Positions 3,012 to 59,829 of a stretch of DNA of 64,000 nt are shown here, one piece after another. The notes under the pieces were generated by a model. The model was not told the DNA's origin. It saw nothing but the letters and a program-made list of their open reading frames with translations, and did no database searches. The translations under genes were made by a program, and so were the position numbers. How positions within the stretch are numbered: position 1 is the first letter of the stretch; each line of letters begins with the position of its first letter. Source of the stretch: Eubacteriales bacterium (lineage in GTDB: Bacteria; Bacillota; Clostridia; Tissierellales; GPF-1); assembly GCA_030625815.1 (NCBI GenBank), contig DAOUQF010000001.1:62001-126000 (forward strand), given 5' to 3'.

Positions 3012-3082
3012 GATAAAGCCTCCTTATTGTTCCGGTTAGTAAAGAAATAACAATGCAGGGGGGAAGTAAGATGGATTTTAGA

Positions 3083-34097: not shown

Positions 34098-34303
34098 TTT
34101 GCGGGTTTGCGATGGCTTTTGGTGTTGAATTGAATTGTCAAATTTTACGTGTTTCATTCAATTTCCAGCGGGTAATCATTTAACGGAAACATAAACGAAA
34201 GCTAACGATTCGGGCATATGCTTATTAAAAAGGCAATAGATTCCAATTGCTAGTCGGAAGTTTAGTTGTATCTCGAAGAATCCAACAAAACTTTAGGATG
34301 TAA

Positions 34304-34385
34304 AAAGGCAAGCTTGTCGAAAGATAAGTGCGCAAAGTTGTGAGTCTAAAGTATCGAAAAGATGCAAGGATTGTCAGACTGCCAT
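34304..34385 (+). promoter_or_regulatory. c-di-GMP-I (GEMM) riboswitch
   Basis: The core fits GEMM-I: GGCAAG, a stem CTTGTC-GAAA-GATAAG with the GAAA tetraloop, the conserved GCGCAAAG, then GAGTCTAAAG leading into the second stem, closing with GACTGCC. The closing strand TGCC (34380-34383), which pairs with GGCA (34306-34309), is also the left arm of the terminator at 34376. Ligand binding should therefore block termination and switch the gene on. The gene controlled encodes a surface protein, a usual c-di-GMP target. Confidence 0.82.
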
Positions 34386-34412
34386 GTTCTATGGCGGTCT
34401 TTTGTTTTTTTT
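34376..34412 (+). terminator. Riboswitch-controlled terminator
   Basis: AGACTGCCAT / ATGGCGGTCT 10-bp stem with a 5-base loop and a long T tract. The left arm overlaps the 3' strand of riboswitch stem P1. Confidence 0.85.
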
Positions 34413-34578
34413 GAAAGGGGGGGATTGAATTCGAGCTTGAAATTTCCAGCGTCTCAGGGATAATTGGCAGCTTTACTGGCTGTTTGCACACGGAAGGAGG
34501 CGATGAACTTATAGAAACGACGTTGCGTAATATGATTTGTATGGCTATAGATTTAATCAGATGAAAGGAGAAAGAAAA
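34413..34578 (+). other. Long leader between the c-di-GMP terminator and the surface protein gene
   Basis: 166 untranslated bases. It contains GGAAGGAGG followed by ATGAACTTATAG, a three-codon frame with a perfect ribosome site, and a small CAGC/GCTG hairpin. I see no second riboswitch. It may be a relic or a translational control element. Confidence 0.35.
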
Positions 34579-35994
34579 ATGAAACGTGGTATGAGAAAAG
34601 TTTTAGGTATCGTACTGACCATGTTGCTGATTCTGAATCTAGCGTCTGCGGCGAGCGCCTATGTGGCGCCATCATTCTTGGAAACGGTGTTAATTGCGGG
34701 TTCTTCTACCGATGAAATTAAATTGGTTACATTTGATTTGCCAGAAGAAGCTGACATTGTTTTTGCGTTTGACTTAACAGGAAGCATGAGTGGCGTCATC
34801 GATGCTGCGAAAGCAAATGCTGGCGCGTTGATGTCTGAATTGGATACATGGGGCGGCGTGCATGGCATTGATTTTGATTATGGCGTCATGTCGTATATGG
34901 ATTATGTAGGCTCTTATGCCTCATGTGGATATGAAGCGTTTTATGGATATCCAGGCGATTATCCATATAGCTTGGATCAGGGAGTAACTTCAAACAATGC
35001 ATTCGTTGATACTGCGATTGCCGGATTGGCTCTTGGCAGCGGTGGAGACGGTCCGCAGGATTATACTCGAATTTTTTATGAGAGTTATGCGGATTGTTGT
35101 GTAAATTGGCGAACGGGTGCGGAGAAAGTGCTCTTGAACTTTGGGGATAATGTACCGCATGATTGCGATTTGAACGAAGACGTTCCCGGCATGATGGGCA
35201 CTTGGTCTACCGGTGGCGACCCGGGTCGAGATGCGATTATGGGTACACCTGACGATCTTGATCTTCAAACTGTTTTAGCGGATATGGCTGATGAAGAGAT
35301 TAAGCTTTTGGAAAGTCACTCAACAACGTATGCAAGCGTGTACTGGGAGTACTGGACGGGGATTACAGGCGGTCATATGTTTGTTACCGAATCTGGTTCG
35401 TGGCTCGATCAAGTGGGCGATGCAATTAAAGAATCGCTTGCATATGTCGAAGATTTGCACTTTGAAGCCGAACCGGGGTTTGAAGCATGGCTGACATCTG
35501 AAATTGTAGATGGCTGGAAGTATGATGAAATTGAAGTGGAAATTACCTTTACTGTTCCTTGGGCAACCCCTGCAGGAGATTATCCATTTGTCATTACTGC
35601 AATGGATGGACAAGGGAATGAATACGGGGATCAGGAAGTTCTGATTCACGTAGTAAGAACACTAATTAACATTGACATCAAACCAGGCAGCTTCCCAAAT
35701 AGCATCAATTTGAAAAACAAAGGTGTTATTCCGGTAGGAATTTTGGGCAGTGCATGCTTTGATGTTACGACAATAGATTTTGAAACTGTTGTATTTGCGG
35801 GAGCAGCACCACAAGATAAAGCGCCTTCGTATGAAGATGTAAACGGAGATGGATTTACTGATCTTGTCTTGCACTTTGCTACGCAAGAGACTGATATTCA
35901 GCCGGGAGATACGGGTGCATGTCTGACGGGATGGACATATGAACTGATGGAATTCGAAGGATGCGACAGTGTTCGAACGATTCCTAAGGAATAA
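34579..35994 (+). CDS. Secreted von Willebrand A domain surface protein
   Basis: A 471-residue exported protein; ATG 34579 follows AAAGGAG. Signal peptide about residues 1-32 (VLGIVLTMLLILNLASAASA). A VWA domain starts at about 55 with the MIDAS motif VFAFDLTGSMSGV (D-x-T-x-S variant of DxSxS) and further metal-site residues in GGDGPQDYTRI. The C-terminal part (about 370-471) begins INIDIKPGSFPNSINLKNKGVI, a module common in secreted bacterial proteins, with the calcium-binding-like DVNGDGFTDL. No sortase motif or membrane anchor is visible. It likely serves adhesion or matrix and is controlled by c-di-GMP. Confidence 0.82.
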   Translation: MKRGMRKVLGIVLTMLLILNLASAASAYVAPSFLETVLIAGSSTDEIKLVTFDLPEEADIVFAFDLTGSMSGVIDAAKANAGALMSELDTWGGVHGIDFDYGVMSYMDYVGSYASCGYEAFYGYPGDYPYSLDQGVTSNNAFVDTAIAGLALGSGGDGPQDYTRIFYESYADCCVNWRTGAEKVLLNFGDNVPHDCDLNEDVPGMMGTWSTGGDPGRDAIMGTPDDLDLQTVLADMADEEIKLLESHSTTYASVYWEYWTGITGGHMFVTESGSWLDQVGDAIKESLAYVEDLHFEAEPGFEAWLTSEIVDGWKYDEIEVEITFTVPWATPAGDYPFVITAMDGQGNEYGDQEVLIHVVRTLINIDIKPGSFPNSINLKNKGVIPVGILGSACFDVTTIDFETVVFAGAAPQDKAPSYEDVNGDGFTDLVLHFATQETDIQPGDTGACLTGWTYELMEFEGCDSVRTIPKE

Positions 35995-36066: not shown

Positions 36067-36303
36067 TCCGGAATACGGGTGTTGAATGGGCGGCGTACGT
36101 CAGAGCTTGGTTCTCTTTTATGTGAAAGTACGACGAAAACTATCCAACGGGATCAAGAAATTGTTATGGAAAACGATTTATTGTGGATGAATAGGGAAAA
36201 ATTGATGAGCTGCTAAATGCATATTGAAAAGCAAGTGCGAATGATATAAACTGTAAATATATTACATCGTTAAATTCACGGTACCGATTAATTGAATAGC
36301 GAT
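36067..36303 (+). other. Intergenic stretch with possible decayed coding and a weak promoter
   Basis: A frame around 36165-36260 reads protein-like but holds two stops, suggesting a decayed gene of unknown kind. TTGAAA (36224-36229) and TATAAA (36245-36250), 15 bases apart, could be the promoter of the operon that starts with the riboswitch leader. Confidence 0.35.
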
Positions 36304-36400
36304 AATTCCGAGTCTATCGTTCTACGGGAAACTATGAGCGGTAAACCTATGGGTAAACGAAGAAATTCAATTGCCTCCCGTGTTTGGAAAGGAAGAATAG
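36304..36400 (+). promoter_or_regulatory. Structured leader, probable Mo/W-cofactor (Moco/Wco) riboswitch, copy 1
   Basis: Core elements in order: TCCGAGT (36307-36313), ACGGGA (36324-36329) pairing with TCCCGT (36376-36381), GGTAAACC (36340-36347), GGGTAAAC (36351-36358), GCCTCCCGT (36373-36381), AAAGGA. The same order (TCCGAGT, GGGAA, GGGTTA, GCCTGCCGT, AAAGGA) is in the leader of the tungsten oxidoreductase operon at 57331. GGAAGAAT (36391-36398) can pair perfectly with ATTCTTTC of the terminator as an antiterminator; stem P1 would sequester its GGAA, so ligand should switch the operon off. Naming the class rests on the shared core plus the genes controlled. Confidence 0.55.
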
Positions 36401-36413
36401 TAAAGCTTTTTTT

Positions 36414-36447
36414 AGCATTCTTTCTTATGGAAAGAATGCTTTTTTTT
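36414..36447 (+). terminator. Terminator controlled by the copy 1 leader
   Basis: AGCATTCTTTC / GAAAGAATGCT perfect 11-bp stem, TTATG loop, then eight T. It lies 28 bases before the first gene. Confidence 0.9.
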
Positions 36448-36474
36448 GGATTGATTTACCGATGGAGGTGAGAA

Positions 36475-36993
36475 ATGAAAAGAATCAAGCAAATTTTATG
36501 GGCTGGTATCACTGTGATTATCATATTTTCCATACGAGGATGGGCGATTCACAATCAAGCCACGCCTCTTGCGAAACGGTTCGCCCCTGAGATGGAAAGC
36601 TTTGAAGCAAAATATGGAAAGGGCGAGAAAAACACAGGGGATGAGCATGTTTTGCTTCGTTATCGATTGGATCAGGACGAAGAGCGGTTTCTCACCGCCG
36701 GAGAGGGCTATGAGGATTGGATCTTATTGGATGTGGTGATTGCCGAGCAAGAAGTTATTGAGGTAGAGGTGGTTTACAGCAAAGAATCGGATGGCTATGG
36801 ATCCTATGTTGAGGAGGAGTGGTTCCTTTCACGCACCTTGCTTTCTACGGATCCAGCTCTTGAGTTGGTTAAGTATCGAAAAGAATTATCCAATGAAGTG
36901 GTAGCGATAACTGGGGCGACAATGACCAGTCAGGGTGTTGTTGATGCGATTAATGCATGCATTAAGGTGAAGGAGGAGACGGAAAATGAGTGA
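36475..36993 (+). CDS. Membrane-anchored FMN-binding domain protein
   Basis: A 172-residue protein with GGAGGTGAG ahead of ATG 36475. One N-terminal membrane helix (ILWAGITVIIIFSIRGWAI), then an extracellular domain ending VAITGATMTSQGVVDAINA. The TGATMTS segment matches the covalent flavinylation motif (D/S-G-A-T-x-T) of FMN_bind domains, where ApbE attaches FMN through the threonine. These domains carry electrons outside the membrane. First gene of the operon; the next start overlaps its end by 8 bases. Confidence 0.8.
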   Translation: MKRIKQILWAGITVIIIFSIRGWAIHNQATPLAKRFAPEMESFEAKYGKGEKNTGDEHVLLRYRLDQDEERFLTAGEGYEDWILLDVVIAEQEVIEVEVVYSKESDGYGSYVEEEWFLSRTLLSTDPALELVKYRKELSNEVVAITGATMTSQGVVDAINACIKVKEETENE

Positions 36994-38587
36994 AAAGTGG
37001 AAATCGGGGTTTAGTTTAGGTTTGGTTGTTTTGATGGGTTTAATGATATTTGGAGGCTGCGCTACGTCGGAGACAAGCGAAGCTCCGGAATCGCCTGCGG
37101 CAGTGGAGGCAGGCTATCATTACGAGGGAGATTTGGTGTTTACGGGTGAAGGCGTATCTTTTGCGATCGCCTATGATGACATCTATCAGCGAGAAGCGGT
37201 TACTCGCGAGGTGAAAAATATTTCTTCAAGTGGTGAAGAAAGTGTAAATCAGGTCAAGGGCATTGTATTGGGCGATTTGCTGCAAGAGCAAGGTTTGTCA
37301 CAAGGGGATTATTCGAGCATGCGGTTTACCGCGGCAGATGGATATGCCATTGATGTGCCTTATGAAATCTTGGTGGAGAAAGAGATTATTTTAGCCTATG
37401 AATTTGACGGTGAAGCATTGGGCGAGAAAAAAATGCCTTTGCGCGTTGCCATTGATGATGTTCGCTCCATGTATTATGTGTCGAACCTGGCATCTATAGA
37501 ATTTTTCTCTGAGACGGTTGAAGACGCAGTCGTTGAGGCGAATGACCGTAAAATTGTTTTTATTGAAACGGCCAGCCAAGGGATTCCTTCAGAAGTCTAT
37601 ACATATTATGAAAATGAAGATCAAGCCATTATGATGAAAGATCTTTTAGCGGCATATGTTGATGCGGAATTTACAAAGGTGGAATTTGTTGCATCGGACG
37701 GATTTGAAAAGACTGAAAGCGCGGATGTGGCGAATCAAGCCTACTTGAAAATCACGGGAGAAGAGGCGCCGTTATTTACGGGAATTGATCTGCCAAAGGG
37801 AATGAACATTAAGAGTGTGACCGTGATGGATGCGGCGAACGTGTCTTTTGTTTCTGCTGAGCAAGCGAAGCAATTATTGGGTGAATTTACGACCAATGAT
37901 TCTGTTGGCGTTTGTTTGGATCAGGTGGTGGAATTGACGGACCTTGAGGGCGAATATTTTGTGTTGGCCTCAAATGATGGATATGTAGTGGAAGTGTCAA
38001 AGAGCGCCTTGAAGGATGCGGTTGTTTATGTGAACAACGATAGAACGAACACGGTTAAATTCGATGTCAAATACCCAAAAAACACGAAGGTGAAAAACTT
38101 GCTTTCCATCACCATTGGGGATGGGGCAAATGCGATTGTCGTTGAGGCGGAGGAAGCTGAATCGGGAACTGATGCACAAGTTGCAGAGGCAGTTGTTCAG
38201 TCAGCTGAGTGGGAGATCGAATTTGATGGCTTGGCGGACGGATCCTTTACTCTCTCAAGCAGCAAAGCGGAACGAAAACTAGAGCGAGTTGCGCTTCATA
38301 CGGAGCGAACGAAAAATGATGAAAAGAAACCGGAGGATTGGGAAGGCTACCGCCTGCTGGATGTTTTGGATTTCTTGCATGTTGAGAGTTTCAACGAGCT
38401 TACGATCACTGCGGCTGACGGGTATGAGGTCGTGTTAACGGCAGATCAAGTTGATGAAGAAACCCTCTTGGCAATCGTTCGAAATGGGGAAGCGCTCAGT
38501 AAGCCGGACAATTTGGTTCAAATGGTGCAAAATACTGAGTTTTCAACAACATGGATAAAAGGGGTTGCTAAGATTACGGTGAAATAG
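36986..38587 (+). CDS. Lipoprotein with repeated molybdopterin-oxidoreductase-like domains
   Basis: A 533-residue lipoprotein: lipobox GLMIFGGC with Cys about residue 25, then a Ser/Pro/Glu linker. At least two, probably three or four, repeats follow the pattern L-(G/L)-D-L-L ... F-(T/V)-A-x-D-G-Y ... LA-(Y/I)... (about 85-185, 200-270, 300-375, 420-530): GIVLGDLLQEQG/FTAADGYAIDV, KDLLAAYVDAE/FVASDGFEK, YRLLDVLDFLH/ITAADGYEVVL. This resembles the sulfite-oxidase-type molybdopterin-binding fold, but I cannot find the conserved cofactor-ligand cysteine, so it may bind a pterin or other ligand without catalysis. The domain recurs in the two other extracellular proteins of the operon. Confidence 0.65.
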   Translation: MSEKWKSGFSLGLVVLMGLMIFGGCATSETSEAPESPAAVEAGYHYEGDLVFTGEGVSFAIAYDDIYQREAVTREVKNISSSGEESVNQVKGIVLGDLLQEQGLSQGDYSSMRFTAADGYAIDVPYEILVEKEIILAYEFDGEALGEKKMPLRVAIDDVRSMYYVSNLASIEFFSETVEDAVVEANDRKIVFIETASQGIPSEVYTYYENEDQAIMMKDLLAAYVDAEFTKVEFVASDGFEKTESADVANQAYLKITGEEAPLFTGIDLPKGMNIKSVTVMDAANVSFVSAEQAKQLLGEFTTNDSVGVCLDQVVELTDLEGEYFVLASNDGYVVEVSKSALKDAVVYVNNDRTNTVKFDVKYPKNTKVKNLLSITIGDGANAIVVEAEEAESGTDAQVAEAVVQSAEWEIEFDGLADGSFTLSSSKAERKLERVALHTERTKNDEKKPEDWEGYRLLDVLDFLHVESFNELTITAADGYEVVLTADQVDEETLLAIVRNGEALSKPDNLVQMVQNTEFSTTWIKGVAKITVK

Positions 38588-38602
38588 TCCGAAGGAGTTG
38601 AG

Positions 38603-39160
38603 ATGAAAGGATTGCGGGGGTTTAGTATTTATGAATTGGTCTTAATGGCTTTGATGGCATCCCTGGGGATTGCCACAAAGCCGATCGTTGTGCCGCTGGC
38701 TCATATGGTGACGGGGCCTCTCTTTATTCCGGGGGGCGCCTTTGCCGGCGGATTTTACATGCTTTGGCTTGTTCTGGCGGCAGGAATGATTGGCAAGCGA
38801 GGAGTACCAACGATAACGGCATTGATTCAAGCCTTGATGATTGTCGTTACAGGAGCCTTTGGGAGTCATGGATTGATAAGTATTCTTACGTATACATTGC
38901 CTGGTTTGATGATTGATTTGGTTTTTTTCACATTCCGTCGCAAATGGGAAACTCCCATTGATTTCTTTTTCGCTGGAATGGTGGCGAATGTAACGGGAAC
39001 CTACTTAACCAATTTGGTGTTCTTTCGTTTGCCTTGGATTCCCTTGTTGATGAGTTTGGCGAGTGCCTTGCTGTCTGGTGGAATCGGCGGTGTGATTGCA
39101 TATCAGATTTATTGCCGAATTCAAGCGACGGGGAGGAGAAAAAATGAAGAGAAAGAATGA
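38603..39160 (+). CDS. ECF transporter S component (substrate-binding subunit)
   Basis: A 185-residue membrane protein starting at ATG 38603 after GAAGGAG. Six hydrophobic segments, an N-terminal YELVLMALMASLGIATKP, and the loop GPLFIPGGAFAGGFYMLW look like the S components of energy-coupling factor importers. The paired ATPases and the EcfT-like protein are encoded 2 kb downstream in the same operon. The substrate is not readable; cofactor-related neighbours suggest a pterin or vitamin-like molecule. Confidence 0.75.
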   Translation: MKGLRGFSIYELVLMALMASLGIATKPIVVPLAHMVTGPLFIPGGAFAGGFYMLWLVLAAGMIGKRGVPTITALIQALMIVVTGAFGSHGLISILTYTLPGLMIDLVFFTFRRKWETPIDFFFAGMVANVTGTYLTNLVFFRLPWIPLLMSLASALLSGGIGGVIAYQIYCRIQATGRRKNEEKE

Positions 39161-40625
39161 GAAGCGTTTTGCGATTCTTTTCCTTGTGGTCGGAATACTA
39201 CTGGTTTTTTCAGGGTGTCAGCAGGCGGAGACGCTTGCTCCTTTAGAAATTAAAGGAGATGTGACGGAAACCATTGAAGTCCATGAGGTATGGCCGAGTT
39301 TGGAAAAAATAAAGGTTGAATGGAATAAAGAGAAGGTCGAAGCGGTTGAAGTGAAGGGTTTGGTAGAAGATTTCGCCTTGTATCGGCACTATGACTGGAT
39401 GCTTGTTGCGGAGGATGGATTTATGGTGCGGATTGGCGGCGAAAGTGTCGATGACACCTATCTTTCGTATTCCGAGGACAAACAGTGGTACTACATTTCG
39501 GAGAAACATCCGGTAAACAGTCGTGTGAAACGAATCAAGGAGATCATCCTTATTAAGGATGAATCGGAAGACCTGGTGTATGATACGGGGTTGACGCTGA
39601 TTATAGAGGGTGAGAATCATCATTTTTCCACGGGGGAACTGCTTGCAAGGGATCACAGGATTGTTATGCAGACCGATGGAGTTAGTCGCTCCGGGGACAT
39701 ATCGATTGAAGTGATGAAGCAAAAACGGGTCATTCCTCTGAGTGATTTGCTGGATTCCGTCGATCGGCAGGTGCTGCTGATGAGCCATTCCGGGGAGATA
39801 CGGTATGAGTCGGCTTTGGATGGATCGATCGAATTGGAAAATGGAGAGATTCATTATCGAGGATTGGATTCGAACACCTCTATGCGCAATCTCCTTGGGA
39901 TCATTGTCGATCCGCCAAAAGCATCAATTATGGATGCTTATCACGATGCGAAATACTATCTGGAACATCAGGTTCCCGTTTTGATGATTTTTCTTGATGG
40001 ATTTTCGTATGCGGAGTATCAAGACCTGGTGAAAATGCATCCGGATTATTATCTGGCGTCCCTACCGGAGTTTGCGATGGCGACATCCGTCTACAAACCG
40101 GTGACCAATGCGGGATTTGCCGCCATGATTACGGGACAATCGCCGGCGGTCAATGGGGTGCATGATCGTAGCGTGCGCGAGCTGGAGTGCGCAACAATTT
40201 TTGACGATGTGAGTGAACGCGGGGAAAAAAGTCTTTTGGTGGAAGGCGAACTGAAGATTTTAAATATCGCGGGTGAAACGCTATTGAATCTCGATCAGAA
40301 TCAGAATGGAACCAGTGATGATGAAATTTTTACAACGGCGATGGAGCGGTTGGATTCTCAGAAATATGCCTATACGATGGTGCATTTTCACAGCATAGAT
40401 GATGCGGGGCACATGAGCGGTCCTCAAGGCGAGCTTACCTGGGAGCGCATTGAAGCCGTTGACGGTTATGTTCGTGATTTGGTGGAAATGTGGGATGGAC
40501 AAGTGATAATTACTGCCGATCATGGGATGCATGCGGAGGAAGAGGGGGGAACCCACGGTGAATTTCGAGCTGAGGATCTGATTGTTCCCTATCTGGTGAT
40601 GCAAGGAGGCAAAGATGAAGAATAA
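39144..40625 (+). CDS. Surface lipoprotein with alkaline phosphatase/nucleotide pyrophosphatase domain
   Basis: A 493-residue lipoprotein; ATG 39144 follows GGGGAGG and overlaps the S-component gene. Lipobox LLVFSGC (Cys about 24). Residues about 30-270 are related to the extracellular repeats of the operon (YDWMLVAEDGFMVRI, VIPLSDLLDS). Residues about 285-493 are an alkaline phosphatase/phosphodiesterase domain: FLDGFSYAEY (metal Asp), the nucleophile region PVTNAGFAAMITGQSP, HSIDDAGHMSGP and TADHGMHAEEEGGTHGEF (metal His/Asp). Enzymes of this type cleave phosphomonoesters or pyrophosphates such as dinucleotide cofactors on the cell surface. Confidence 0.8.
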   Translation: MKRKNEKRFAILFLVVGILLVFSGCQQAETLAPLEIKGDVTETIEVHEVWPSLEKIKVEWNKEKVEAVEVKGLVEDFALYRHYDWMLVAEDGFMVRIGGESVDDTYLSYSEDKQWYYISEKHPVNSRVKRIKEIILIKDESEDLVYDTGLTLIIEGENHHFSTGELLARDHRIVMQTDGVSRSGDISIEVMKQKRVIPLSDLLDSVDRQVLLMSHSGEIRYESALDGSIELENGEIHYRGLDSNTSMRNLLGIIVDPPKASIMDAYHDAKYYLEHQVPVLMIFLDGFSYAEYQDLVKMHPDYYLASLPEFAMATSVYKPVTNAGFAAMITGQSPAVNGVHDRSVRELECATIFDDVSERGEKSLLVEGELKILNIAGETLLNLDQNQNGTSDDEIFTTAMERLDSQKYAYTMVHFHSIDDAGHMSGPQGELTWERIEAVDGYVRDLVEMWDGQVIITADHGMHAEEEGGTHGEFRAEDLIVPYLVMQGGKDEE

Positions 40626-41142
40626 ACAAAATCGATGGATTATCGGGATTATCATGGTATTGGCTGTGATTCTCGGCGTGACCGGATTCTTGAACCGCGG
40701 CGCCGCATCGGAAAAAGCGGCATTGAATGAAAATGCTGTTTTCAAGGTGTTTGTGAATGGGGAAGAAATCCTCAGCCGAAGTATGGGGGAGATCCAGGCG
40801 CTGGGCGAATCTGATTTTCATGCAAATCTAAAGACGAATGGAAAAGAGGCGGTTGAACACCAGTATACCGGTGTCTTGTTAAAAACCATCCTTGAAGATT
40901 CAGGAGTGGATTTGCAGAATGCGAAAGGGGTTGTGGTGTCCGCCGTTGATGGATACGCGGTTTCTGTCTCAATGGAGAAGATATTGGATGAGGACAATGT
41001 GTATCTTGCCTATAAACGGGATGGAGAGCCGATTGGCACTCGAGATGAAGGCGGGAAGGGACCCTATCAAATGATTATTCGAAAAGATGCCTTTAGCCAG
41101 CATTGGTGCAAATATGCCTTAACCGCAGATGTGCAGAAATAA
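40615..41142 (+). CDS. Membrane-anchored single molybdopterin-oxidoreductase-like domain
   Basis: A 175-residue protein starting at ATG 40615, overlapping the phosphatase gene by 11 bases. N-terminal membrane helix (IIGIIMVLAVILGVTGFL), then one domain of the same family as the lipoprotein repeats: YTGVLLKTILEDSGVDL, VSAVDGYAVSVSMEKIL, VYLAYKRDGEPIG, GPYQMIIRKDAFSQHWCKYA. The LAYxxDGEPIG and GPxxMI spacing is the clearest match to sulfite-oxidase-type domains in the operon. A single Cys near the C terminus (HWCKYA) is not at the canonical ligand position. Confidence 0.65.
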   Translation: MKNKQNRWIIGIIMVLAVILGVTGFLNRGAASEKAALNENAVFKVFVNGEEILSRSMGEIQALGESDFHANLKTNGKEAVEHQYTGVLLKTILEDSGVDLQNAKGVVVSAVDGYAVSVSMEKILDEDNVYLAYKRDGEPIGTRDEGGKGPYQMIIRKDAFSQHWCKYALTADVQK

Positions 41143-41828
41143 TGAAAGAGGCTATGGTTCAAATCCAAGGCTTGGATTTTTGTTATCAAAAGGAGAAACC
41201 ATTGTTTCGGGAGACCAGAGCGGAATTCTACGGCGGCCAGATTACCGGAATCGTCGGATTGAGCGGTTGTGGAAAATCGACATTGTTGCGGTTGATCAAC
41301 GGAAACTTGAGCATGGAAAAGTGGCCGGATGTTTCTGGACAGATTCTGATTGAGGGAAAAAATCGTGAGACTTGGAATCAGGATGAACTGATTCAAAAGA
41401 TGGGAACGGTTTATCAGGATCCGGACTGTCAAATTCTCTTTTCTCATGTTGAGGATGAATGGGTTTTTGGCATGGAGAATTATCAGTTAACAGCCGAAGT
41501 GATGGAAGAAAGAATGACGGCGGTATGCGATTTGCTGCAGATTCATCATCTGCGCTATCGGAATCCCAACCATTTATCGGGTGGAGAAAAGCAGTTGGTG
41601 ATCTTGGCGTCGATTTACTGTCTTGAAGCAGAAATTTTGATTCTGGATGAATGCATGGCGCAGGTGGATCCGGATGGGCGTCAATTGATCGGCGAAGCGC
41701 TGCAGAAATTACGGGATGCTGGAAAAACCCTGATTATGGTGGAACATGAAGAGAAAAATTTACAAATTGCGGATCGGATCTATCGGGTGATCAATCAAAA
41801 ACTGATCGAAGAGGTAATTTCGGGATAA
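41142..41828 (+). CDS. ECF transporter ATPase subunit 1
   Basis: A 228-residue ABC ATPase. Walker A GLSGCGKST, Q-loop YQDPDCQIL, signature LSGGEKQ, Walker B ILILDECMAQVDP (Cys replaces the usual Pro after the Glu) and switch His in VEHEEKN. The Q-helix with DPDCQ is typical of EcfA. The ATG shares one base with the previous stop (TAATG). Confidence 0.88.
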   Translation: MKEAMVQIQGLDFCYQKEKPLFRETRAEFYGGQITGIVGLSGCGKSTLLRLINGNLSMEKWPDVSGQILIEGKNRETWNQDELIQKMGTVYQDPDCQILFSHVEDEWVFGMENYQLTAEVMEERMTAVCDLLQIHHLRYRNPNHLSGGEKQLVILASIYCLEAEILILDECMAQVDPDGRQLIGEALQKLRDAGKTLIMVEHEEKNLQIADRIYRVINQKLIEEVISG

Positions 41829-41846
41829 GAAGAAGGGGTTGGAAGC

Positions 41847-42503
41847 ATGGCGTATTACGAAGCAAATAAGATCTCTTATGAAATTCGCGGACGGACCATT
41901 TTTAAAGAGATTAGTTTTCAATTGGAGCAAAAGGAATTTGTTTCTTTGGTGGGAGCCAATGGGATTGGGAAAACGACGCTAAGCAAACTCATGATTGGGA
42001 TTCAAAAACCAAGCGGAGGAGAAATTCGATTGGACGGGGTTCCGGTTTCGGAGTATGCCCTTTTTGAAGTGGGGCGGAAAGTTGGATATCTGTTTCAAAA
42101 CCCCAGCTGTCAAATCTTTTGCCCGACAATAATGGAAGAATTGCTTTTCTCCCTTCGGTTTCAAGGTGGGGAGACGCCTGAAGGACGGGATCGAGCAGTA
42201 GAAATGATGCGACGATTTTCCCTCTTAGATGCGCAAAACAGTCCGACCCATTGTTTGAGTCAAGGGGAGAAGCAGCGATTGGCGTTGGCAACGATTTTAA
42301 TGAATCAACCGGAATATTTGATGCTGGACGAGCCAACCACGGGACTTGATCAAGTTCGAAAGACCGAATTGGGACACTATCTGCAAGAAATTCACCAATC
42401 CGGGGTGGGGATCTTGATGATTAGCCATGATCAGGATTTTGTGAAGCAGATGAGCCAGCGAATCTTGCGACTGGATGATGGAGGTCTGTATGAAGAAGAT
42501 TGA
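41847..42503 (+). CDS. ECF transporter ATPase subunit 2
   Basis: A 218-residue ABC ATPase with Walker A GANGIGKTT, Q-loop FQNPSCQIF, signature LSQGEKQRL, Walker B LMLDEPTTGLDQ and switch His in ISHDQDF. It pairs with the preceding ATPase as EcfA/EcfA'. The end overlaps the EcfT gene by 14 bases. Confidence 0.9.
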   Translation: MAYYEANKISYEIRGRTIFKEISFQLEQKEFVSLVGANGIGKTTLSKLMIGIQKPSGGEIRLDGVPVSEYALFEVGRKVGYLFQNPSCQIFCPTIMEELLFSLRFQGGETPEGRDRAVEMMRRFSLLDAQNSPTHCLSQGEKQRLALATILMNQPEYLMLDEPTTGLDQVRKTELGHYLQEIHQSGVGILMISHDQDFVKQMSQRILRLDDGGLYEED

Positions 42504-43212
42504 ATTTGATCCTCGGACCAAGATCTTTGTGGTGTTCTTTCTTTCGACCTTGGCGGTCATGTTTTCTGATTGGATGAGCCTTTTCCGCTTATCGCTGATT
42601 GGGATTGGATTTGGATTGGTTTTTCGTGTCCCATTTCATTTGTTATTGCGGCGCTTTTCAAAGATTCTCCTTGTCTTTCTTGGATTGATCATTGTTCAAA
42701 GTATCTTTATTCATGAAGGCGAGGCGCTCATTGAGGTTTTTGGAATCCAGATTCTTACGGTCGTCGGATTGCAGCGAGGACTGGGATATGTTTTTCGAGT
42801 GGGAATTGTTCTATTGTCCGGGGCGATTTTATCAACTTCCAGCATGCGGGACTTATTGCAAGCGCTTCAGCAACTGAAAGTGCCCTATGTGATTGGATTG
42901 ATGGTGGCCATTGGGGTGAAATTTTTGCCGATCTTTGTGCAAGAAGTGCAGGATGCCTTCGTGGCCATGCAGTTGAGGGGAATTGATGTGAAGCATCTTC
43001 GGATGAAACGTCGCATTCAGGTGATTGCCTACTTGTTTATTCCCTTGATTCTATCGACATTGGACAAGGCGGAGCGATTGGCGGCAACCATTGAGAGCCG
43101 TGGTTTCCGGATTGGGGCAAAGCGCTCGCAGTATCGGAAACTTCAGCTGAAACGACAAGATGTGATCTGTATGATGATTGTACCGATGATCATGCTTTTA
43201 ACACAGAACTAA
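42490..43212 (+). CDS. ECF transporter transmembrane coupling protein EcfT
   Basis: A 240-residue protein; ATG 42490 follows TGGAGGT. Five to six membrane helices and the EcfT coupling motifs: the Ala-Arg-Gly-type AMQLRGIDVKHLRMKRR (about residues 155-171) and AATIESRGFRIG (about 193-204), which contact the two ATPases. Together with the S component and both ATPases this gives a complete group II-like dedicated ECF importer. Confidence 0.88.
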   Translation: MKKIEFDPRTKIFVVFFLSTLAVMFSDWMSLFRLSLIGIGFGLVFRVPFHLLLRRFSKILLVFLGLIIVQSIFIHEGEALIEVFGIQILTVVGLQRGLGYVFRVGIVLLSGAILSTSSMRDLLQALQQLKVPYVIGLMVAIGVKFLPIFVQEVQDAFVAMQLRGIDVKHLRMKRRIQVIAYLFIPLILSTLDKAERLAATIESRGFRIGAKRSQYRKLQLKRQDVICMMIVPMIMLLTQN

Positions 43213-43256
43213 GAATTTTAAACTAGGTCTAAATATAGCATACGAGGAGGAAACAG

Positions 43257-44018
43257 ATGAAGGTATTATCCGTTATCGGGTATTCAAAATCAGGCAAAAC
43301 AACCACGATTGAAACGATTATTCGGGAGTTGCGAAAGCGAAACTATCGTGTGGGCAGCATTAAGGATATTCATTATGAAGGATTTCAAATGGATACAGAT
43401 GGAACCAATACGGATCGCCATCGGAAGGCAGGCGCGGAATTAGTGACGGCACGGGGCTTGCATGAAACCGACGTGCTGTTTTCAGAGCGATTGGACTTGT
43501 ATGCCATGGCTCGATTTTATGATGTGGATTACTTAGTCGTTGAAGGAATTCGGGAAGCGAACACACCGATTATTCTTACCGCCGACAACGTGGAAGATTT
43601 GGACGAACGTTGGAGCGATCATGTATTTATGGTTTCCGGGAAGATTGCAGACACGATTGACGCGTATCGGGGTGTGCCGGCCATCAGTGTCTTGGAAGAT
43701 CCGATGGCGCTGGTTGATTGCGTTGAAGAAACAACCTTTGAATTGTTGCCGGATTTTCCGGCAAGCTGTTGTACCGCGTGCGGGGGGACTTGTCGGGAAC
43801 TTTGCGCAGCCATTTTAAAGGGGGAGCGAAAGCGGGAAGATTGCGTGCTCGATCAAACACAAGTACGATTGACTGTGAATGATCAGCCGATTTCCATAGT
43901 TCCCTTTGTTCAAAATATTCTTCGAAACGCGATGCTTGGCGTTGTGAAGGAATTGGATGGATTTCAAGAGGATGCGAAGATCAAAGTGGAGCTGGGTCCA
44001 TCATGGCAGCAGAAATGA
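43257..44018 (+). CDS. MobB-type GTPase with C-terminal Cys-rich domain
   Basis: A 253-residue protein with CGAGGAGG ahead of ATG 43257. The N-terminal about 160 residues are MobB-like: P-loop GYSKSGKTTTIE (about 8-19), the switch region DTDGTNTDRHRKAGA and LVVEGIREANTPII. A Cys motif CCTACGGTCRELCAA...C (about 174-200) suggests an Fe-S or Zn site, and the tail LTVNDQPISIVPFVQNIL resembles MobB fusions in anaerobes and archaea. MobB assists molybdopterin dinucleotide formation. Its place beside an ECF importer is the key clue to the operon's substrate. Confidence 0.8.
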   Translation: MKVLSVIGYSKSGKTTTIETIIRELRKRNYRVGSIKDIHYEGFQMDTDGTNTDRHRKAGAELVTARGLHETDVLFSERLDLYAMARFYDVDYLVVEGIREANTPIILTADNVEDLDERWSDHVFMVSGKIADTIDAYRGVPAISVLEDPMALVDCVEETTFELLPDFPASCCTACGGTCRELCAAILKGERKREDCVLDQTQVRLTVNDQPISIVPFVQNILRNAMLGVVKELDGFQEDAKIKVELGPSWQQK

Positions 44019-44653
44019 GAGTGTTGGAGCAATGCGTTCCCATGAATTCAAAGCGGAACGATGTGCGGCTTTGTCAGTGGGATGGAGAAGCGGTGGTGGT
44101 GAAAGACTTTGCTTCTTTCGAGGACTATTGGCGGGAAAAAGAGATCTACCAGCATCTGCTGAAGATTGCGCCGCAATTGTGTCCGCGTGTGATTGTGTTT
44201 GACGATCAGAAGAAAGAATTGATTATGGCATATCTTTCGGGTGTCACGGTTTTAGAGGCGTTGGAACGAGCGGAGAAAGAAAATGATCAAGCGAAGGGGA
44301 CTGAAATACTCACTCGATTGCTCGCTTGGATGCAAGGCTTTTATGAAAGTCTAAAGGCGGAAGAGCATCAGGAAATTATGGGAGATATCAATTTGCGGAA
44401 TTTTTTGTGGGCTGAGCAGCGCGTCGTCGGAATTGATTTTGAGGGATGCTGTGCAGGCAATCCTGCCGATGAGGTTCTGCAAGTGATTGCTTTTTATCTC
44501 CTCTATGAGCCCGAAAGAACAGCGTTCAAGTTGTCGGTGGTTCGATCCATAATTGATCCGCTTCTTCGGATGACGAACTGCTCCGTGCTGTTATTTTGGG
44601 AAACTCTGGATGAGGAAATGGTAAAAATTCGAGCAAGAAGAAATCAAAACTAA
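44003..44653 (+). CDS. Kinase-like protein of the aminoglycoside phosphotransferase/RIO fold
   Basis: A 216-residue protein. Either ATG 44003 or ATG 44015 (overlapping the previous stop as ATGA) could start it. Kinase-fold signs: VVVKDF (ATP lysine about residue 33), LIMAYLSGVTVLEAL (hinge), the catalytic loop GDINLRNFLW with Asp and Asn (about 132-141), and the metal-binding VGIDFEGC. The HRD-like histidine is missing, as in several small-molecule kinases. It could rephosphorylate an imported molecule. No phosphotransferase of this fold has a settled role beside MobB, so function is inference. Confidence 0.7.
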   Translation: MAAEMRVLEQCVPMNSKRNDVRLCQWDGEAVVVKDFASFEDYWREKEIYQHLLKIAPQLCPRVIVFDDQKKELIMAYLSGVTVLEALERAEKENDQAKGTEILTRLLAWMQGFYESLKAEEHQEIMGDINLRNFLWAEQRVVGIDFEGCCAGNPADEVLQVIAFYLLYEPERTAFKLSVVRSIIDPLLRMTNCSVLLFWETLDEEMVKIRARRNQN

Positions 44654-57311: not shown

Positions 57312-57330
57312 GGAGATAGAATTGGAGAAC

Positions 57331-57417
57331 GACTCCGAGTTCTATTGGCCAGAGATGGGGAATAGAATCGTTAGGGTTAAATCAGTAATGGGTTAGCCTG
57401 CCGTTTGCAAAGGAGTT
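57331..57417 (+). promoter_or_regulatory. Structured leader, probable Mo/W-cofactor riboswitch, copy 2
   Basis: Core elements in order: GACTCCGAGT (57331-57340), GGGAA (57358-57362), GGGTTA (57374 and 57390), GCCTGCCGT (57396-57404), AAAGGAGTT (57409-57417). Stem P1 pairs GACTCC with GGAGTT. The same TCCGAGT, GGGAA, GCCTnCCGT and AAAGGA order is in the leader at 36304. Here the 3' strand of P1 is the left arm of the terminator, so ligand should block termination and switch on the tungsten-pterin enzyme. That is opposite to copy 1, as expected for an enzyme that uses the cofactor. Confidence 0.55.
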
Positions 57418-57458
57418 CAGTCTACTGTGATTTATTATAGTGGATTGGACTCCTTTTT
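57409..57458 (+). terminator. Terminator controlled by the copy 2 leader
   Basis: A 22-pair stem with several G-U pairs and a TTTA loop (left arm 57409-57430, right arm 57435-57456), ending in a T tract. The left arm overlaps stem P1 of the leader. Confidence 0.85.
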
Positions 57459-57557
57459 CGTACAAAAGGAGGGATGGGACTGTTTATCAGGTTGGGTGCT
57501 GAGTAACGGCAATCATGTGGGATTGTCAATTTGTGGTGGCGGATAAGGAGGAAATGT

Positions 57558-57959
57558 ATGAAGCCAGGAAGAATCAAGATTCAAGTGAATGCAAACGTGT
57601 GTCAAGGTTGTCGTGTGTGTGAAAGCGTCTGTAGTCTGAGTCATATTGGAGCGGTGAATCCGAATCAAACGGGGATCAAGATCACGGAAACCAAGATCCT
57701 CGGCAGATTTAAGCAAACCGTCTGTCAGCAATGCATCGATATGCCTTGTGCGAGCGCGTGTCCGGAAAAAGTCATCACGCGGGATCGATATTCTGGTGCG
57801 GTTGTGATCGGTGATGGATGTATTGGTTGCGGTGCTTGCCAAGAGGCTTGTCCCATCGATGCGATTCAAATGTGGAATAACACGGCGGTCAAATGCGATC
57901 TTTGCGGAGGAGCGCCAAAATGTGTGGAAGCTTGTCCGAGACAAGCATTGAGCTGGTAA
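57558..57959 (+). CDS. Polyferredoxin subunit of aldehyde:ferredoxin oxidoreductase
   Basis: A 133-residue protein; ATG 57558 follows ATAAGGAGG. Four cysteine groups, CQGCRVCESVC, CQQCIDMPCASACP, CIGCGACQEACP and CDLCGGAPKCVEACP, provide for four 4Fe-4S clusters in the DMSO reductase-type electron-transfer layout. It lies 10 bases before the catalytic subunit and should carry electrons to or from it, as in the multi-subunit tungsten oxidoreductases of anaerobes. Confidence 0.9.
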   Translation: MKPGRIKIQVNANVCQGCRVCESVCSLSHIGAVNPNQTGIKITETKILGRFKQTVCQQCIDMPCASACPEKVITRDRYSGAVVIGDGCIGCGACQEACPIDAIQMWNNTAVKCDLCGGAPKCVEACPRQALSW

Positions 57960-57969
57960 GGAGGGGACG

Positions 57970-59829
57970 ATGAAAGGGTATCGAGACTGTGAATTGCGAA
58001 TCAATCTAAAAGAAAAGTCGATTGAAAAGAAGACCTTGAATCAGGAATACGTTGAAAAATATATGGGCGGAGAAGGGTATGGGATTGCCCTGCTGTGGGA
58101 TGACATGCCTCATGAAATTGATCCCTTTGATGATCAGAATTTATTGAGTTTCAACACGGGGCCGTTGACTGGAACGCCCGCGCCAAGCGCGTCGCGCACC
58201 AGCATTGTGTTTATTTCGCCTTTGACGGGAACAATTGGGGCGTCGAATATGGGCAGTCATTGGGGGGCGGAGTTGAAATTCGCCGGATACGATTCGATTG
58301 TTCTGGAAGATGCAGCGAAAGAACCGGTTTACATACTTATCGAAGAGGATCAGGTTTCCATCCATGACGCCAAAGCACTATGGGGATTGGATACGAGGGA
58401 AACTACGGAAGAATTGAAAAAGATCCATGGCGAGAATCACAAAGTGGTTTGCATCGGCCCTTCGGGGGAAAAGCAGAATAAGCTGGCCGCCATTTTTAGC
58501 GATGACTGTTTTGCTGGCCGAGGCGGTGCCGGTGCGGTGATGGGACAGAAAAAGTTAAAAGCCATTGTTGTTCGCGGAAACGGCAGTGTGGAAGTTGCGG
58601 ATCCAGAAGGTTTTATGGTGATGCAGAAGAAAGCGATTCAAGAGCTGAGAACGGAAGAATATACCTGGGGTCCGGTTCATGGATATGGAACACCGGCATG
58701 GTTGGATGGGTCCAACGAGTGTGGATTGTTGCCTGTCGATAATTTTCAGAAGAATCAAACCGATCAGCTGGATCCGATTCTGCCGATCAATCTTTGGAAT
58801 GATCGCGAGAAGTTTGATGTTAAACGAAGAACCTGCTATGCCTGCCAATTGGGTTGTCACAAATTCGTGATGATGGGGGATGTTGAAGTCGGTGAATTGG
58901 AGTACGAAACCATTGCCGCCTTTGGTCCGCGATGCGGAGTCTATAACTATAAGGATATCTCCATGGCGAATTATTATGCATCGATTTATGGCATTGATAC
59001 GATTTCCGCTGGAGCTACAGTCTCGGCGGCTATGGAATGGTATGAAAAAGGAATTTTGACGCAAGATGATTTGGATGGGCTTGATTTGAAATTCGGCAAT
59101 GGGGAAGCCATGGTGGAATTGATTCGAAAGATGTGCCTGCGGGAAGGCTGTGGAGAACTTTTTGCAGACGGGTCCTATTGGGCGGGAGAAAGAATTGGAG
59201 AAAAAGCGAAACCTTATGTGATGACAGTGAAAAAGATGGAGATTTCTGCTTGTGATCCAAGGGGAGCTGCATCCATGGCCATCGCTTTTGGAACCAGTGA
59301 GCGCGGCGCCTGTCATATGCGGCCATATGCGGCGACGATTGATTCCTTTGGGTATCTTTTCCCGGATTTGGGCATTGAGGAAGCCAAGGATCCTTTCAGT
59401 GAAACGGAGTCGAAAGAATGGTTGAAGGCGCTCAAGGAATATTTTGTCGTCACAAACCTGATCGGACTCTGTGATTTCAATGTAATCAATATGGAGATTC
59501 AACCGTCGACGATGGCGGAACTCTATGTGAAAACAACGGGCATCCCGTGCGACAAGGTCGAATTGCTTCGGAAAGCGGAACGAACCATCGCCTTGGAACG
59601 GGCATTGAATTATGAGCGGGGATTTAGACGGAAAGACGATCACCTGCCAAAACGCTTTATGAGAGAACCGGCTTTTGGCGGTCCTGCGAAAGGCAGAACC
59701 ATCGATATGGATGTGGCTTTGGATCGATTCTATGAAGCTTGTCATTTTGACAAGGAAACAGCCATACCGACAAAAGAAAAGTATGAAGAATTGGGTATGG
59801 AGAAAGTTGCGGAGGCGTTATATCGGTAG
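57970..59829 (+). CDS. Tungsten-containing aldehyde:ferredoxin oxidoreductase, catalytic subunit
   Basis: A 619-residue AOR-family enzyme. The N-terminal domain with FNTGPLTGTPAPSASRT and GAELKFAGYDSIVLE binds the bis-pterin cofactor; GRGGAGAVMGQKKLKAIVV follows. The 4Fe-4S ligands are in RRTCYACQLGC (about residue 290) and a last Cys in GLCDFN (about 500). It interconverts aldehydes and carboxylic acids using ferredoxin. AOR also carries DPRGAASMAIAF near the active site. The operon has MerR plus cofactor-type control. Substrate range cannot be read. Confidence 0.93.
   Translation: MKGYRDCELRINLKEKSIEKKTLNQEYVEKYMGGEGYGIALLWDDMPHEIDPFDDQNLLSFNTGPLTGTPAPSASRTSIVFISPLTGTIGASNMGSHWGAELKFAGYDSIVLEDAAKEPVYILIEEDQVSIHDAKALWGLDTRETTEELKKIHGENHKVVCIGPSGEKQNKLAAIFSDDCFAGRGGAGAVMGQKKLKAIVVRGNGSVEVADPEGFMVMQKKAIQELRTEEYTWGPVHGYGTPAWLDGSNECGLLPVDNFQKNQTDQLDPILPINLWNDREKFDVKRRTCYACQLGCHKFVMMGDVEVGELEYETIAAFGPRCGVYNYKDISMANYYASIYGIDTISAGATVSAAMEWYEKGILTQDDLDGLDLKFGNGEAMVELIRKMCLREGCGELFADGSYWAGERIGEKAKPYVMTVKKMEISACDPRGAASMAIAFGTSERGACHMRPYAATIDSFGYLFPDLGIEEAKDPFSETESKEWLKALKEYFVVTNLIGLCDFNVINMEIQPSTMAELYVKTTGIPCDKVELLRKAERTIALERALNYERGFRRKDDHLPKRFMREPAFGGPAKGRTIDMDVALDRFYEACHFDKETAIPTKEKYEELGMEKVAEALYR

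What the first reader, a model, noticed from the sequence alone, without database searches (positions are those of the whole stretch)
36304..44653. Possible extracellular molybdenum/tungsten-cofactor salvage operon
Seen: one codirectional run encoding an FMN-binding membrane protein, three surface proteins that share a sulfite-oxidase-type (molybdopterin-oxidoreductase-like) domain, one of them fused to an alkaline phosphatase/nucleotide pyrophosphatase domain, then a full ECF importer, a MobB GTPase with a Cys-rich tail, and a kinase-fold protein. Known: pyrophosphatases of this type can split dinucleotides, ECF importers take up vitamins, MobB acts in molybdopterin dinucleotide formation. 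Inferred: surface domains capture the cofactor, the phosphatase trims its nucleotide and phosphate, the ECF importer brings in the core, and the kinase plus MobB rebuild it. The leader looks like a cofactor riboswitch that turns the operon off when cofactor is present. I know of no described bacterial uptake system for this cofactor.
Basis: partly seen in the sequence, partly recalled or inferred. Interest (0 to 1): 0.92.

Follow-up and report, generated by a model that had tools for sequence, protein, structure and literature searches.

The report
Candidate bacterial molybdenum/tungsten-cofactor importer
A conserved set of genes under a molybdenum/tungsten-cofactor riboswitch looks like a system that captures this cofactor from outside and imports it, which would explain how some bacteria run molybdenum and tungsten enzymes without the known genes for making the cofactor.

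Summary
The operon is real and its leader is a Moco riboswitch (RF01055, 64.3 bits, gathering 36) of the P3-less type linked in print to the tungsten cofactor. Order: FMN_bind; double-SUOX protein; YkoE-fold S component; NPP-like pyrophosphatase; single-SUOX protein; two ATPases; T component; MobB; APH-fold kinase.

Of 100 related genomes, 30 carry a strong S homologue; 25 of these have RF01055 upstream on the same strand. Decisive: 13 of 30 have neither MoaC nor MoaA over cut-off, yet all 13 encode AOR and/or XDH-family enzymes; one is a single-contig genome with a formate dehydrogenase read through one TGA. Ten of 13 also lack MoeA and none has a TupA- or ModA-like hit (13 of 17 MoaC+ carriers do), which favours import of metal-bearing cofactor. 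SUOX domains lack the Mo-ligating Cys (29 of 29 aligned); nearest solved relatives include the pterin-binding PruR.

Not confirmed: a SUOX domain fused to the phosphatase. Untested: substrate, kinase and MobB steps. Against: 17 of 30 carriers, the window's genome included, keep MoaC.

The parts
36294..36410 (+). Moco/Tuco riboswitch aptamer (RF01055), P3 stem absent
   Evidence: cmscan 64.3 bits, E 3.6e-13; 4 bases where P3 would stand
36414..36440 (+). intrinsic terminator-like stem; its 5' arm (36417-36426) can instead pair with 36389-36398 at the 3' end of the aptamer (candidate antiterminator): predicted OFF switch
   Evidence: terminator scan; constrained folds -39.1 kcal/mol with terminator, -35.1 with antiterminator
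36475..36993 (+). FMN_bind protein (RnfG-like) with an N-terminal hydrophobic stretch
   Evidence: PF04205 42.9 bits; rnfG models matched below cut-off
36986..38587 (+). putative lipoprotein with two SUOX-type (Oxidored_molyb) stretches
   Evidence: PF00174 53.7 bits, 2 stretches
38603..39160 (+). ECF S component, YkoE fold
   Evidence: PF09819 43.1 bits; AlphaFold2 mean pLDDT 87.2; Foldseek 5edl E 6.6e-5, TM 0.76
39138..40625 (+). putative lipoprotein phosphodiesterase/nucleotide pyrophosphatase (alkaline phosphatase superfamily) with an N-terminal extension of unproven fold; start codon uncertain
   Evidence: PF01663/PF01676; AP-superfamily/NPP fold over residues 276-491, Z about 20; catalytic residues conserved
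40615..41142 (+). single SUOX-type domain with N-terminal hydrophobic stretch, without the Mo-ligating Cys
   Evidence: PF00174 39.4 bits; no Cys in the aligned segment in 29 of 29 rows
41145..41828 (+). ECF ATPase 1
   Evidence: PF00005 88.7 bits; TIGR04520 best NCBIfam model, 160 vs cut-off 315
41847..42503 (+). ECF ATPase 2
   Evidence: PF00005 105.8 bits; TIGR04520 best, 152 vs 315
42475..43212 (+). ECF T component (CbiQ family)
   Evidence: PF02361 103.7 bits
43257..44018 (+). MobB GTPase with Cys-rich, possibly Fe-S, C-terminal part
   Evidence: PF03205 75.1 bits; TIGR00176 80.8 vs cut-off 76.2
44003..44653 (+). APH-fold small-molecule kinase
   Evidence: PF01636 29.8 vs 23.2; invariant D128, N133, D145 in 19 sequences

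Best explanation
The operon is a capture, trimming, import and re-activation system for the molybdenum/tungsten pterin cofactor. Shown: a P3-less Moco-type riboswitch followed by a terminator-like stem stands upstream, and the set occurs in genomes that have cofactor-dependent enzymes but no MoaA/MoaC. Inferred: surface SUOX-fold domains without the Mo-ligating Cys bind released cofactor; the NPP-like enzyme removes the nucleotide (and perhaps the terminal phosphate) from dinucleotide forms; the YkoE-fold S component with the T component and two ATPases imports the remaining pterin, most likely with its metal; the kinase restores the phosphate and MobB (with GTP) hands the cofactor on. The FMN protein may keep the pterin or dithiolene reduced. 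Cofactor inside the cell shuts the operon off. In makers such as the window's genome it would be a supplement; in MoaA/MoaC-negative genomes the only source in sight.
For: RF01055 at 36294-36410; upstream of S on the same strand in 25 of 30 strong carriers (coordinates); cmscan of 16 of the carrier loci found it in 15. Partner genes beside S in the 30 carriers, window included: single-SUOX 29, T 27, phosphodiesterase 27, MobB 25, kinase 19. 13 of 30 carriers lack MoaC and MoaA over cut-off; all 13 have AFOR_N or MoCoBD_1 hits. Of the 40 MoaC-negative genomes, enzyme-positive are 13 of 13 with S and 8 of 27 without (Fisher p 1.9e-5); RF01055-positive are 13 of 13 and 3 of 27 (p 4.7e-8). G031, one contig, lacks MoaA, MoaC and MoeA but has Fdh-alpha (TIGR01591, 889.6 vs cut-off 666.25) with one TGA read through; G057 likewise (874.4). 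MoeA_N in 3 of 13 MoaC-negative vs 14 of 17 MoaC-positive carriers; TupA-like or ModA-like (PF13531 E under 1e-30) 0 of 13 vs 13 of 17. SUOX domains without Cys in 29 of 29 aligned, of 42 found; nearest PDB sequences 7kom and PruR 7kos. AP-superfamily catalytic residues conserved in 24 sequences. Longer operons add S-layer-anchored proteins with SUOX matches, in three f3 genomes and in G093 under a riboswitch of their own. Elsewhere: 247 stretches encode an S relative, 80 kept; 54 of the 80 have a leader match upstream.
Against: No binding or uptake data. 17 of 30 carriers, the window's genome included, have MoaC; MoaC is missing about as often in non-carriers (27 of 70), so the cassette tracks enzyme retention, not loss of synthesis as such. 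Several MoaC-negative genomes are fragmented; G059 is 71%, G093 86%, G026 and G074 88% complete; G031 has 6% contamination. G044 (negative) and G020 (positive) have S proteins identical at 169 of 183 places, so one call may be an assembly gap. G021, G059 and G069 keep a MoeA_N hit, and G069 a riboswitched MobA-MoeA fusion with MobB and a BtuC/FecCD-type importer, which would suit import of metal-free pterin. PruR is said to have a site too small for Moco (PMC13259868, passages). G090 and G057 lack MobB and kinase directly beside S, G090 also the phosphodiesterase. G085 and G093 have no riboswitch directly before S; seven named loci with room upstream have none by cmscan. Eight MoaC-negative genomes without S also have enzyme hits. 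Fisher tests treat related genomes as independent, and the 1e-30 cut for ModA-like was chosen after seeing the list.
Confidence: 0.68

Rival explanations
1. The transporter takes up a metal-free precursor (molybdopterin, or cyclic pyranopterin monophosphate), and Mo/W is inserted inside by MoeA.
For: G069 (MoaA/MoaC-negative, 2 contigs) keeps a riboswitched operon with a MobA-MoeA fusion, MobB and a BtuC/FecCD-type importer; G021 and G059 keep weaker MoeA_N hits. MoaE is found in only 4 of 31 genomes, so it cannot tell which intermediate enters.
Against: 10 of 13 MoaC-negative carriers have no MoeA_N hit and 0 of 13 have TupA- or ModA-like hits; other Mo/W importers were not searched. The pyrophosphatase would have little use on a precursor that carries no nucleotide.
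Confidence: 0.14
2. It is a metal importer (molybdate, tungstate or a metal chelate) under the cofactor riboswitch.
For: ECF-type CbiMNQO/NikMNQO carry metals (recalled), and molybdate transporters are known under Moco RNAs (PMC2408646, abstract). The window's genome has no TupA-like hit though it has MoaA, MoaC and MoeA.
Against: Would not supply genomes without MoaA, MoaC and MoeA; the window's genome has another riboswitched ABC importer of BtuC/FecCD type (L085); S is YkoE-like; SUOX domains, pyrophosphatase, MobB and kinase are unexplained.
Confidence: 0.07
3. It takes up another pterin or a thiamine-type precursor; the riboswitch couples it to cofactor status indirectly.
For: S is YkoE-fold (5edl) and YkoE serves thiamine precursors (recalled); PruR SUOX-fold proteins bind tetrahydromonapterin (PMC13259868, passages).
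Against: No TPP riboswitch in the window at gathering threshold; MobB sits in the cassette in 25 of 30 carriers; S presence tracks Mo/W enzymes and the Moco riboswitch.
Confidence: 0.06
4. It is an extracellular redox system: surface SUOX and FMN proteins are enzymes or electron carriers, and the ECF genes serve it only incidentally.
For: FMN_bind, Fer4_5+FMN_bind and FAD+FMN_bind proteins recur in the operons.
Against: The Mo-ligating Cys is absent in 29 of 29 aligned single-SUOX domains; the ECF genes are the part most often found with S (A2 75, A1 71, T 70 of 80 loci; ATPase labels may include other ABC ATPases nearby).
Confidence: 0.05

Closest known systems
YkoEDC and other ECF vitamin importers
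   Same: S component of YkoE family and fold, T component, two ATPase domains; riboswitch control by the end-product cofactor (known for vitamin importers, recalled)
   Different: Moco/Tuco riboswitch; two separate ATPase genes (YkoD fused, recalled); SUOX domains, pyrophosphatase, MobB and kinase in the operon
Moco/Tuco riboswitch regulons (Regulski 2008, PMC2408646, abstract and passages read)
   Same: RF01055 aptamer; P3-less type correlated with tungsten cofactor
   Different: Targets named in what I read are synthesis, molybdate/tungstate transport and enzymes; the words salvage and cobalt do not occur in its main text
PruR pterin-binding proteins (7kos; PMC13259868, passages read)
   Same: Exported SUOX-fold domain without the Mo-ligating Cys; among the two nearest solved sequences
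   Different: PruR feeds c-di-GMP signalling and is said to have a site too small for Moco; here the domains, some S-layer anchored, sit with an importer
Orphan molybdoprotein genomes (PMC6147048, passages read)
   Same: Molybdoproteins without a complete synthesis pathway, most without known Mo transporters
   Different: In the passages read it suggests unknown synthesis genes or Mo-independent forms; import is proposed here
Dietary Moco use by C. elegans (PMC9793310, two passages read)
   Same: Mature cofactor taken from outside supports a Mo enzyme
   Different: Animal; transport mechanism stated as unknown

Membership tests
Moco/Tuco riboswitch RF01055 | covariance-model score over gathering threshold | tested here: met
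   64.3 vs 36 bits
Moco/Tuco riboswitch RF01055 | P3-less subtype (correlated with tungsten cofactor in PMC2408646) | tested here: met
   3 to 6 bases in place of P3 in 25 of 25 aligned leaders
Moco/Tuco riboswitch RF01055 | binds Moco or Tuco | not testable with these tools
   needs a binding or reporter assay
ECF importer | S component, CbiQ-type T component and two ATPases together | tested here: met
   ATPases are below the NCBIfam ECF cut-off (160 and 152 vs 315 bits)
YkoE (thiamine-precursor) S component | PF09819 match and YkoE fold | tested here: met
   43.1 vs 25.2 bits; 5edl TM 0.76, 20% identity
YkoE (thiamine-precursor) S component | thiamine context (TPP riboswitch) | tested here: not met
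   no TPP riboswitch in the window at gathering threshold; RF01055 instead
SUOX-family molybdoenzyme | Oxidored_molyb domain | tested here: met
   PF00174 over cut-off in two window proteins
SUOX-family molybdoenzyme | Mo-ligating Cys | tested here: not met
   T, S or K at the aligned place and no Cys in the segment in 29 of 29 single-SUOX rows; the place rests on a recalled motif; the double-SUOX protein was judged by eye only
PruR-type pterin-binding protein | sequence relation to solved PruR | tested here: inconclusive
   profile hit to 7kos at E 0.0037, to 7kom at 1.4e-4
PruR-type pterin-binding protein | binds a pterin | not testable with these tools
   needs a binding assay
Nucleotide pyrophosphatase/phosphodiesterase (NPP) | AP-superfamily fold with Thr nucleophile and Asp/His metal ligands | tested here: met
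   Z about 20 to NPPs, PafA and phosphonoacetate hydrolase alike; T323, D287, D421, H425, D461, H462, H473 in 24 of 24 (their roles recalled). The fold does not separate NPP from other AP enzymes
MobB | MobB model over cut-off | tested here: met
   PF03205 75.1 vs 26.6; TIGR00176 80.8 vs 76.2; the longer MobB/FeS models PRK14494 are matched below cut-off
Cofactor salvage system | present in genomes that need but cannot make the cofactor | tested here: met
   13 of 30 carriers have Mo/W enzymes without MoaC and MoaA
Cofactor salvage system | measured uptake of the cofactor | not testable with these tools
   wet-lab

The most novel reading that the evidence does not exclude
A first dedicated bacterial system for scavenging the intact, metal-bearing molybdenum/tungsten cofactor from the surroundings, with S-layer-anchored arrays of catalytically dead SUOX-fold domains as cofactor traps; recurrent loss of cofactor synthesis would then make many anaerobic Bacillota cofactor auxotrophs that live on cofactor released by neighbours.
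Probability: 0.55. Interest if true: 0.95.

Novelty: new variant of a known kind. Interest (0 to 1): 0.88.

Why it matters
Free cofactor is thought to be labile (recalled), and a 2018 survey left several hundred genomes with part of the Mo trait, orphan molybdoproteins above all, unexplained (PMC6147048, passages read). A dedicated importer would make Moco/Tuco a shared good in anaerobic communities, explain some of those genomes, and give a tool for feeding or labelling the cofactor. The carriers, their riboswitches and their missing genes make the idea directly testable.

Tried and rejected
SUOX domain in the N-terminal part of the phosphatase protein: Pfam on 10 members gave nothing relevant, a PDB profile search only weak unrelated hits, hhalign against the SUOX profile probability 24.6%; pdb_via rows spanned residues 276-491. 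Left open.

MoaE as a marker: 4 of 31 genomes only (30 carriers plus G092), absent also from most MoaC-positive ones, so it says nothing on auxotrophy here. PF13531 at E 1e-5 hits 30 of 31 genomes, too broad; only hits under 1e-30 (G020, G048, G065, G094, G098) were counted as ModA-like, a cut set after seeing the list. The TupA-like query itself is below the NCBIfam TupA cut-off (251.6 vs 400).

Five weak S homologues (L063-L067, 28-35% identity) show no other cassette gene and were not counted as carriers; this drops G009 and G038, so 30 rather than 32 of 100.

Rows left out of alignments: 27 of 30 S proteins (A1), 24 of 27 phosphodiesterases (A2), 29 of 42 single-SUOX sequences (A3), 25 leaders (A5); near-copies and fragments were dropped by eye.

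Named genomes: MoaC was sought for 50 of the 80 loci (those already in the first set and part of the tail left out); 49 were held and 34 had MoaC. They carry no completeness figures and were not used in the tests. Of the 26 named loci without a leader match before S, 14 have under 4.5 kb before S, two (L145, L165) have surface genes reaching towards the edge of the stretch, and ten lack it with more room; seven of those ten were also scanned with Rfam, without a match to RF01055.

Novelty rests on ten paper searches in an open-access library, none of which listed, by title and abstract, a bacterial importer of this cofactor; subscription papers were not seen. Papers were seen as search listings, abstracts or passages, none in full.
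Full report
What is there. The window (G000:C12:62001-126000) holds ten codirectional genes from 36475 to 44653. A Moco riboswitch aptamer lies at 36294-36410, followed by a terminator-like stem at 36414-36440. The 3' end of the aptamer (36389-36398) can pair with the terminator's 5' arm over ten bases, so the two are exclusive; constrained folds give -39.1 kcal/mol with the terminator and -35.1 with the antiterminator. This is the layout of an OFF switch; it is a prediction. Pfam identities are in the parts list. The genome has three more RF01055 sites: before a moeA gene at C12:127085, before a ferredoxin-type and an AOR gene at window 57322, and at C9:46273 before a small protein and a BtuC/FecCD-type ABC importer. 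Where the operon ends was not determined.

Conservation. The S protein was sought in 100 genomes, the window's own among them: 32 match at 1e-5, 30 strongly (E at or under 7.5e-27; one, G040, is a fragment at a contig end). In the 30 carriers, neighbours by blastp at 1e-8 are: single-SUOX protein 29, T component 27, phosphodiesterase 27, MobB 25, kinase 19 (maps). Some absences are contig ends; G090 lacks phosphodiesterase, MobB and kinase beside S and G057 MobB and kinase. RF01055 lies upstream of S on the same strand in 25 of 30 (coordinates), from under 0.1 to about 9.5 kb away, the longer gaps filled by further surface genes. Of the other five, G070, G020 and G074 are cut by contig ends; G085 and G093 have no riboswitch directly before S, but one stands before a surface array elsewhere in the genome.

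Longer versions. In many f5, f7 and f19 carriers the operon starts with further surface genes. Those of L059 were scanned: a 387 aa protein with three SLH stretches and a sub-threshold SUOX match (21.7, cut-off 24); a 1311 aa protein with SLH, propeller and SUOX matches; a 272 aa SUOX protein; a 391 aa Fer4_5/FMN_bind membrane protein. A second small SUOX protein follows. In three f3 genomes (L072-L074) and G093 (L082) such an array is a separate operon behind its own RF01055.

The auxotrophy test. On the same 100 genomes: MoaC 60, MoaA over its cut-off 54, MoeA_N 59, AFOR_N 62, MoCoBD_1 63, RF01055 58. Thirteen of the 30 carriers lack MoaC and MoaA: G004, G018, G021, G026, G031, G033, G034, G044, G057, G059, G069, G074, G093. 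All 13 have AOR and/or XDH-family hits. MoaC is missing about as often without S (27 of 70), so loss of synthesis as such is not tied to S; what differs is whether the enzymes stay. Among the 40 MoaC-negative genomes the enzyme count is 13 of 13 with S and 8 of 27 without (p 1.9e-5); RF01055 is in 13 of 13 and 3 of 27 (p 4.7e-8). Of the eight exceptions, G076 has MoeA and, at a contig edge, MoaA; G092 has a riboswitched surface array cut by a contig end, a MogA-like and a TupA-like gene; G086 is 84% complete and has MoeA; the other five (G014, G019, G029, G067, G078) have one enzyme hit each and no RF01055. These tests treat genomes as independent, which they are not. On the S tree of 27 rows the MoaC state changes at least seven times, and the negatives lie in six coded families, so one shared loss does not explain them. 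Incomplete assemblies may add false negatives: G044 (negative) and G020 (positive) have S proteins alike at 169 of 183 places.

Stronger single cases. G031 is one contig, 98% complete (6% contamination), without MoaA, MoaC or MoeA, and encodes formate dehydrogenase alpha (TIGR01591, 889.6 vs cut-off 666.25) when its one TGA is read as selenocysteine. G057 (98%), whose contig length equals that of Anaerosalibacter massiliensis ND1, is alike (874.4), has three XDH-family hits, and carries a second formate-dehydrogenase-like gene (474.8, below cut-off) right behind its T component gene.

What enters. MoeA_N is found in 3 of 13 MoaC-negative and 14 of 17 MoaC-positive carriers (p 0.0024). TupA-like or ModA-like proteins occur in 0 of 13 and 13 of 17 (p 2.2e-5; the ModA-like cut of 1e-30 was set after seeing the list, and other importer types were not searched). 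Without insertase and without these importers, import of metal-bearing cofactor is the simplest reading. G069 is different: it keeps a riboswitched operon of BtuC/FecCD-type importer, MobA-MoeA fusion and MobB and could take metal-free pterin. MoaE is found in 4 of 31 genomes, mostly absent also from makers, and decides nothing.

The proteins. The S model (pLDDT 87.2) is closest to YkoE 5edl (TM 0.76; the entry's title says only S component of an ECF transporter, the name YkoE is recalled). The phosphodiesterase model (pLDDT 91.0) matches NPPs and other AP-superfamily enzymes over residues 276-491, with catalytic residues conserved; the fold does not fix its substrate. The single-SUOX domains have no Cys at the place where, by a recalled motif, the Mo ligand sits, in 29 of 29 aligned. 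Their only PDB sequence matches up to E 0.01 are 7kom and PruR 7kos. A review (PMC13259868, passages) says PruR lacks that Cys, sits in the periplasm, binds tetrahydromonapterin, and has a site probably too small for Moco. So pterin binding by such a domain has precedent; binding of the full cofactor does not. The kinase keeps D128, N133 and D145 in 19 sequences.

Tungsten. All 25 aligned leaders have only 3 to 6 bases where the P3 stem would stand; Regulski et al. tie P3-less RNAs to tungsten-cofactor users (PMC2408646, passages). Carriers often have several AORs.

Spread. A pattern scan of the genome collection gave 247 stretches that encode an S relative, of which the best 80 were kept, by their titles mostly Bacillota with a few others. 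In these 80, on the strand of S: A2 75, A1 71, T 70, single-SUOX 66, MobB 57, double-SUOX 54, phosphodiesterase 53, kinase 45 (tblastn 1e-6); a match to a model built from the 25 leaders lies upstream in 54. MoaC was found in 34 of 49 of their genomes searched.

Verdict. It remains a genomic inference until binding or uptake is measured.

Noticed in passing
L070:1619-3477 and L071:9595-11581: In G031 and G018 a second Moco riboswitch stands directly before a glutamate-semialdehyde dehydrogenase (TIGR01236, over cut-off): a Moco-independent aldehyde dehydrogenase apparently under cofactor control.
   Followed up: partly
window 57322-59829: A second Moco riboswitch (39.9 bits) precedes a ferredoxin-type protein and an AOR gene.
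   Followed up: no
31 genomes: MoaE is missing from most MoaC-positive genomes among them (4 of 31 hits in all); their molybdopterin synthase may be non-canonical.
   Followed up: no
L168:700-2784 (G057:C19): A formate-dehydrogenase-like gene (TIGR01591 474.8, cut-off 666.25) follows the T component gene of the cassette on the same strand.
   Followed up: partly
window 15369-15971: 200-residue, hydrophobic protein without Pfam match inside an XDH-type cluster with a MobA-like NTP transferase, XdhC and an NTPase_1 protein.
   Followed up: no
window 34297-35994: c-di-GMP-I riboswitch (63.1 bits) before a 485 aa probable exported protein without Pfam match.
   Followed up: no
window 1815-3356, minus strand: T-box leader (120.5 bits) before trpB (TIGR00263, over cut-off).
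   Followed up: partly
L075:7525-13058: G069: riboswitched operon of BtuC/FecCD-type ABC importer, MobA-MoeA fusion (602 aa) and MobB in a genome without MoaA/MoaC.
   Followed up: partly
L082 and L072-L074: Riboswitched arrays of large proteins (up to 1338 aa) resembling the SLH/SUOX proteins of L059, apart from the importer genes.
   Followed up: partly
L035:12852-13394, L036:6358-6900: A cobalamin adenosyltransferase gene (PF01923; TIGR00636 over cut-off) follows the kinase in two f3 cassettes.
   Followed up: partly
L063-L067: Weak S homologues (28-35% identity) without the other cassette genes: probably S components of another substrate.
   Followed up: no
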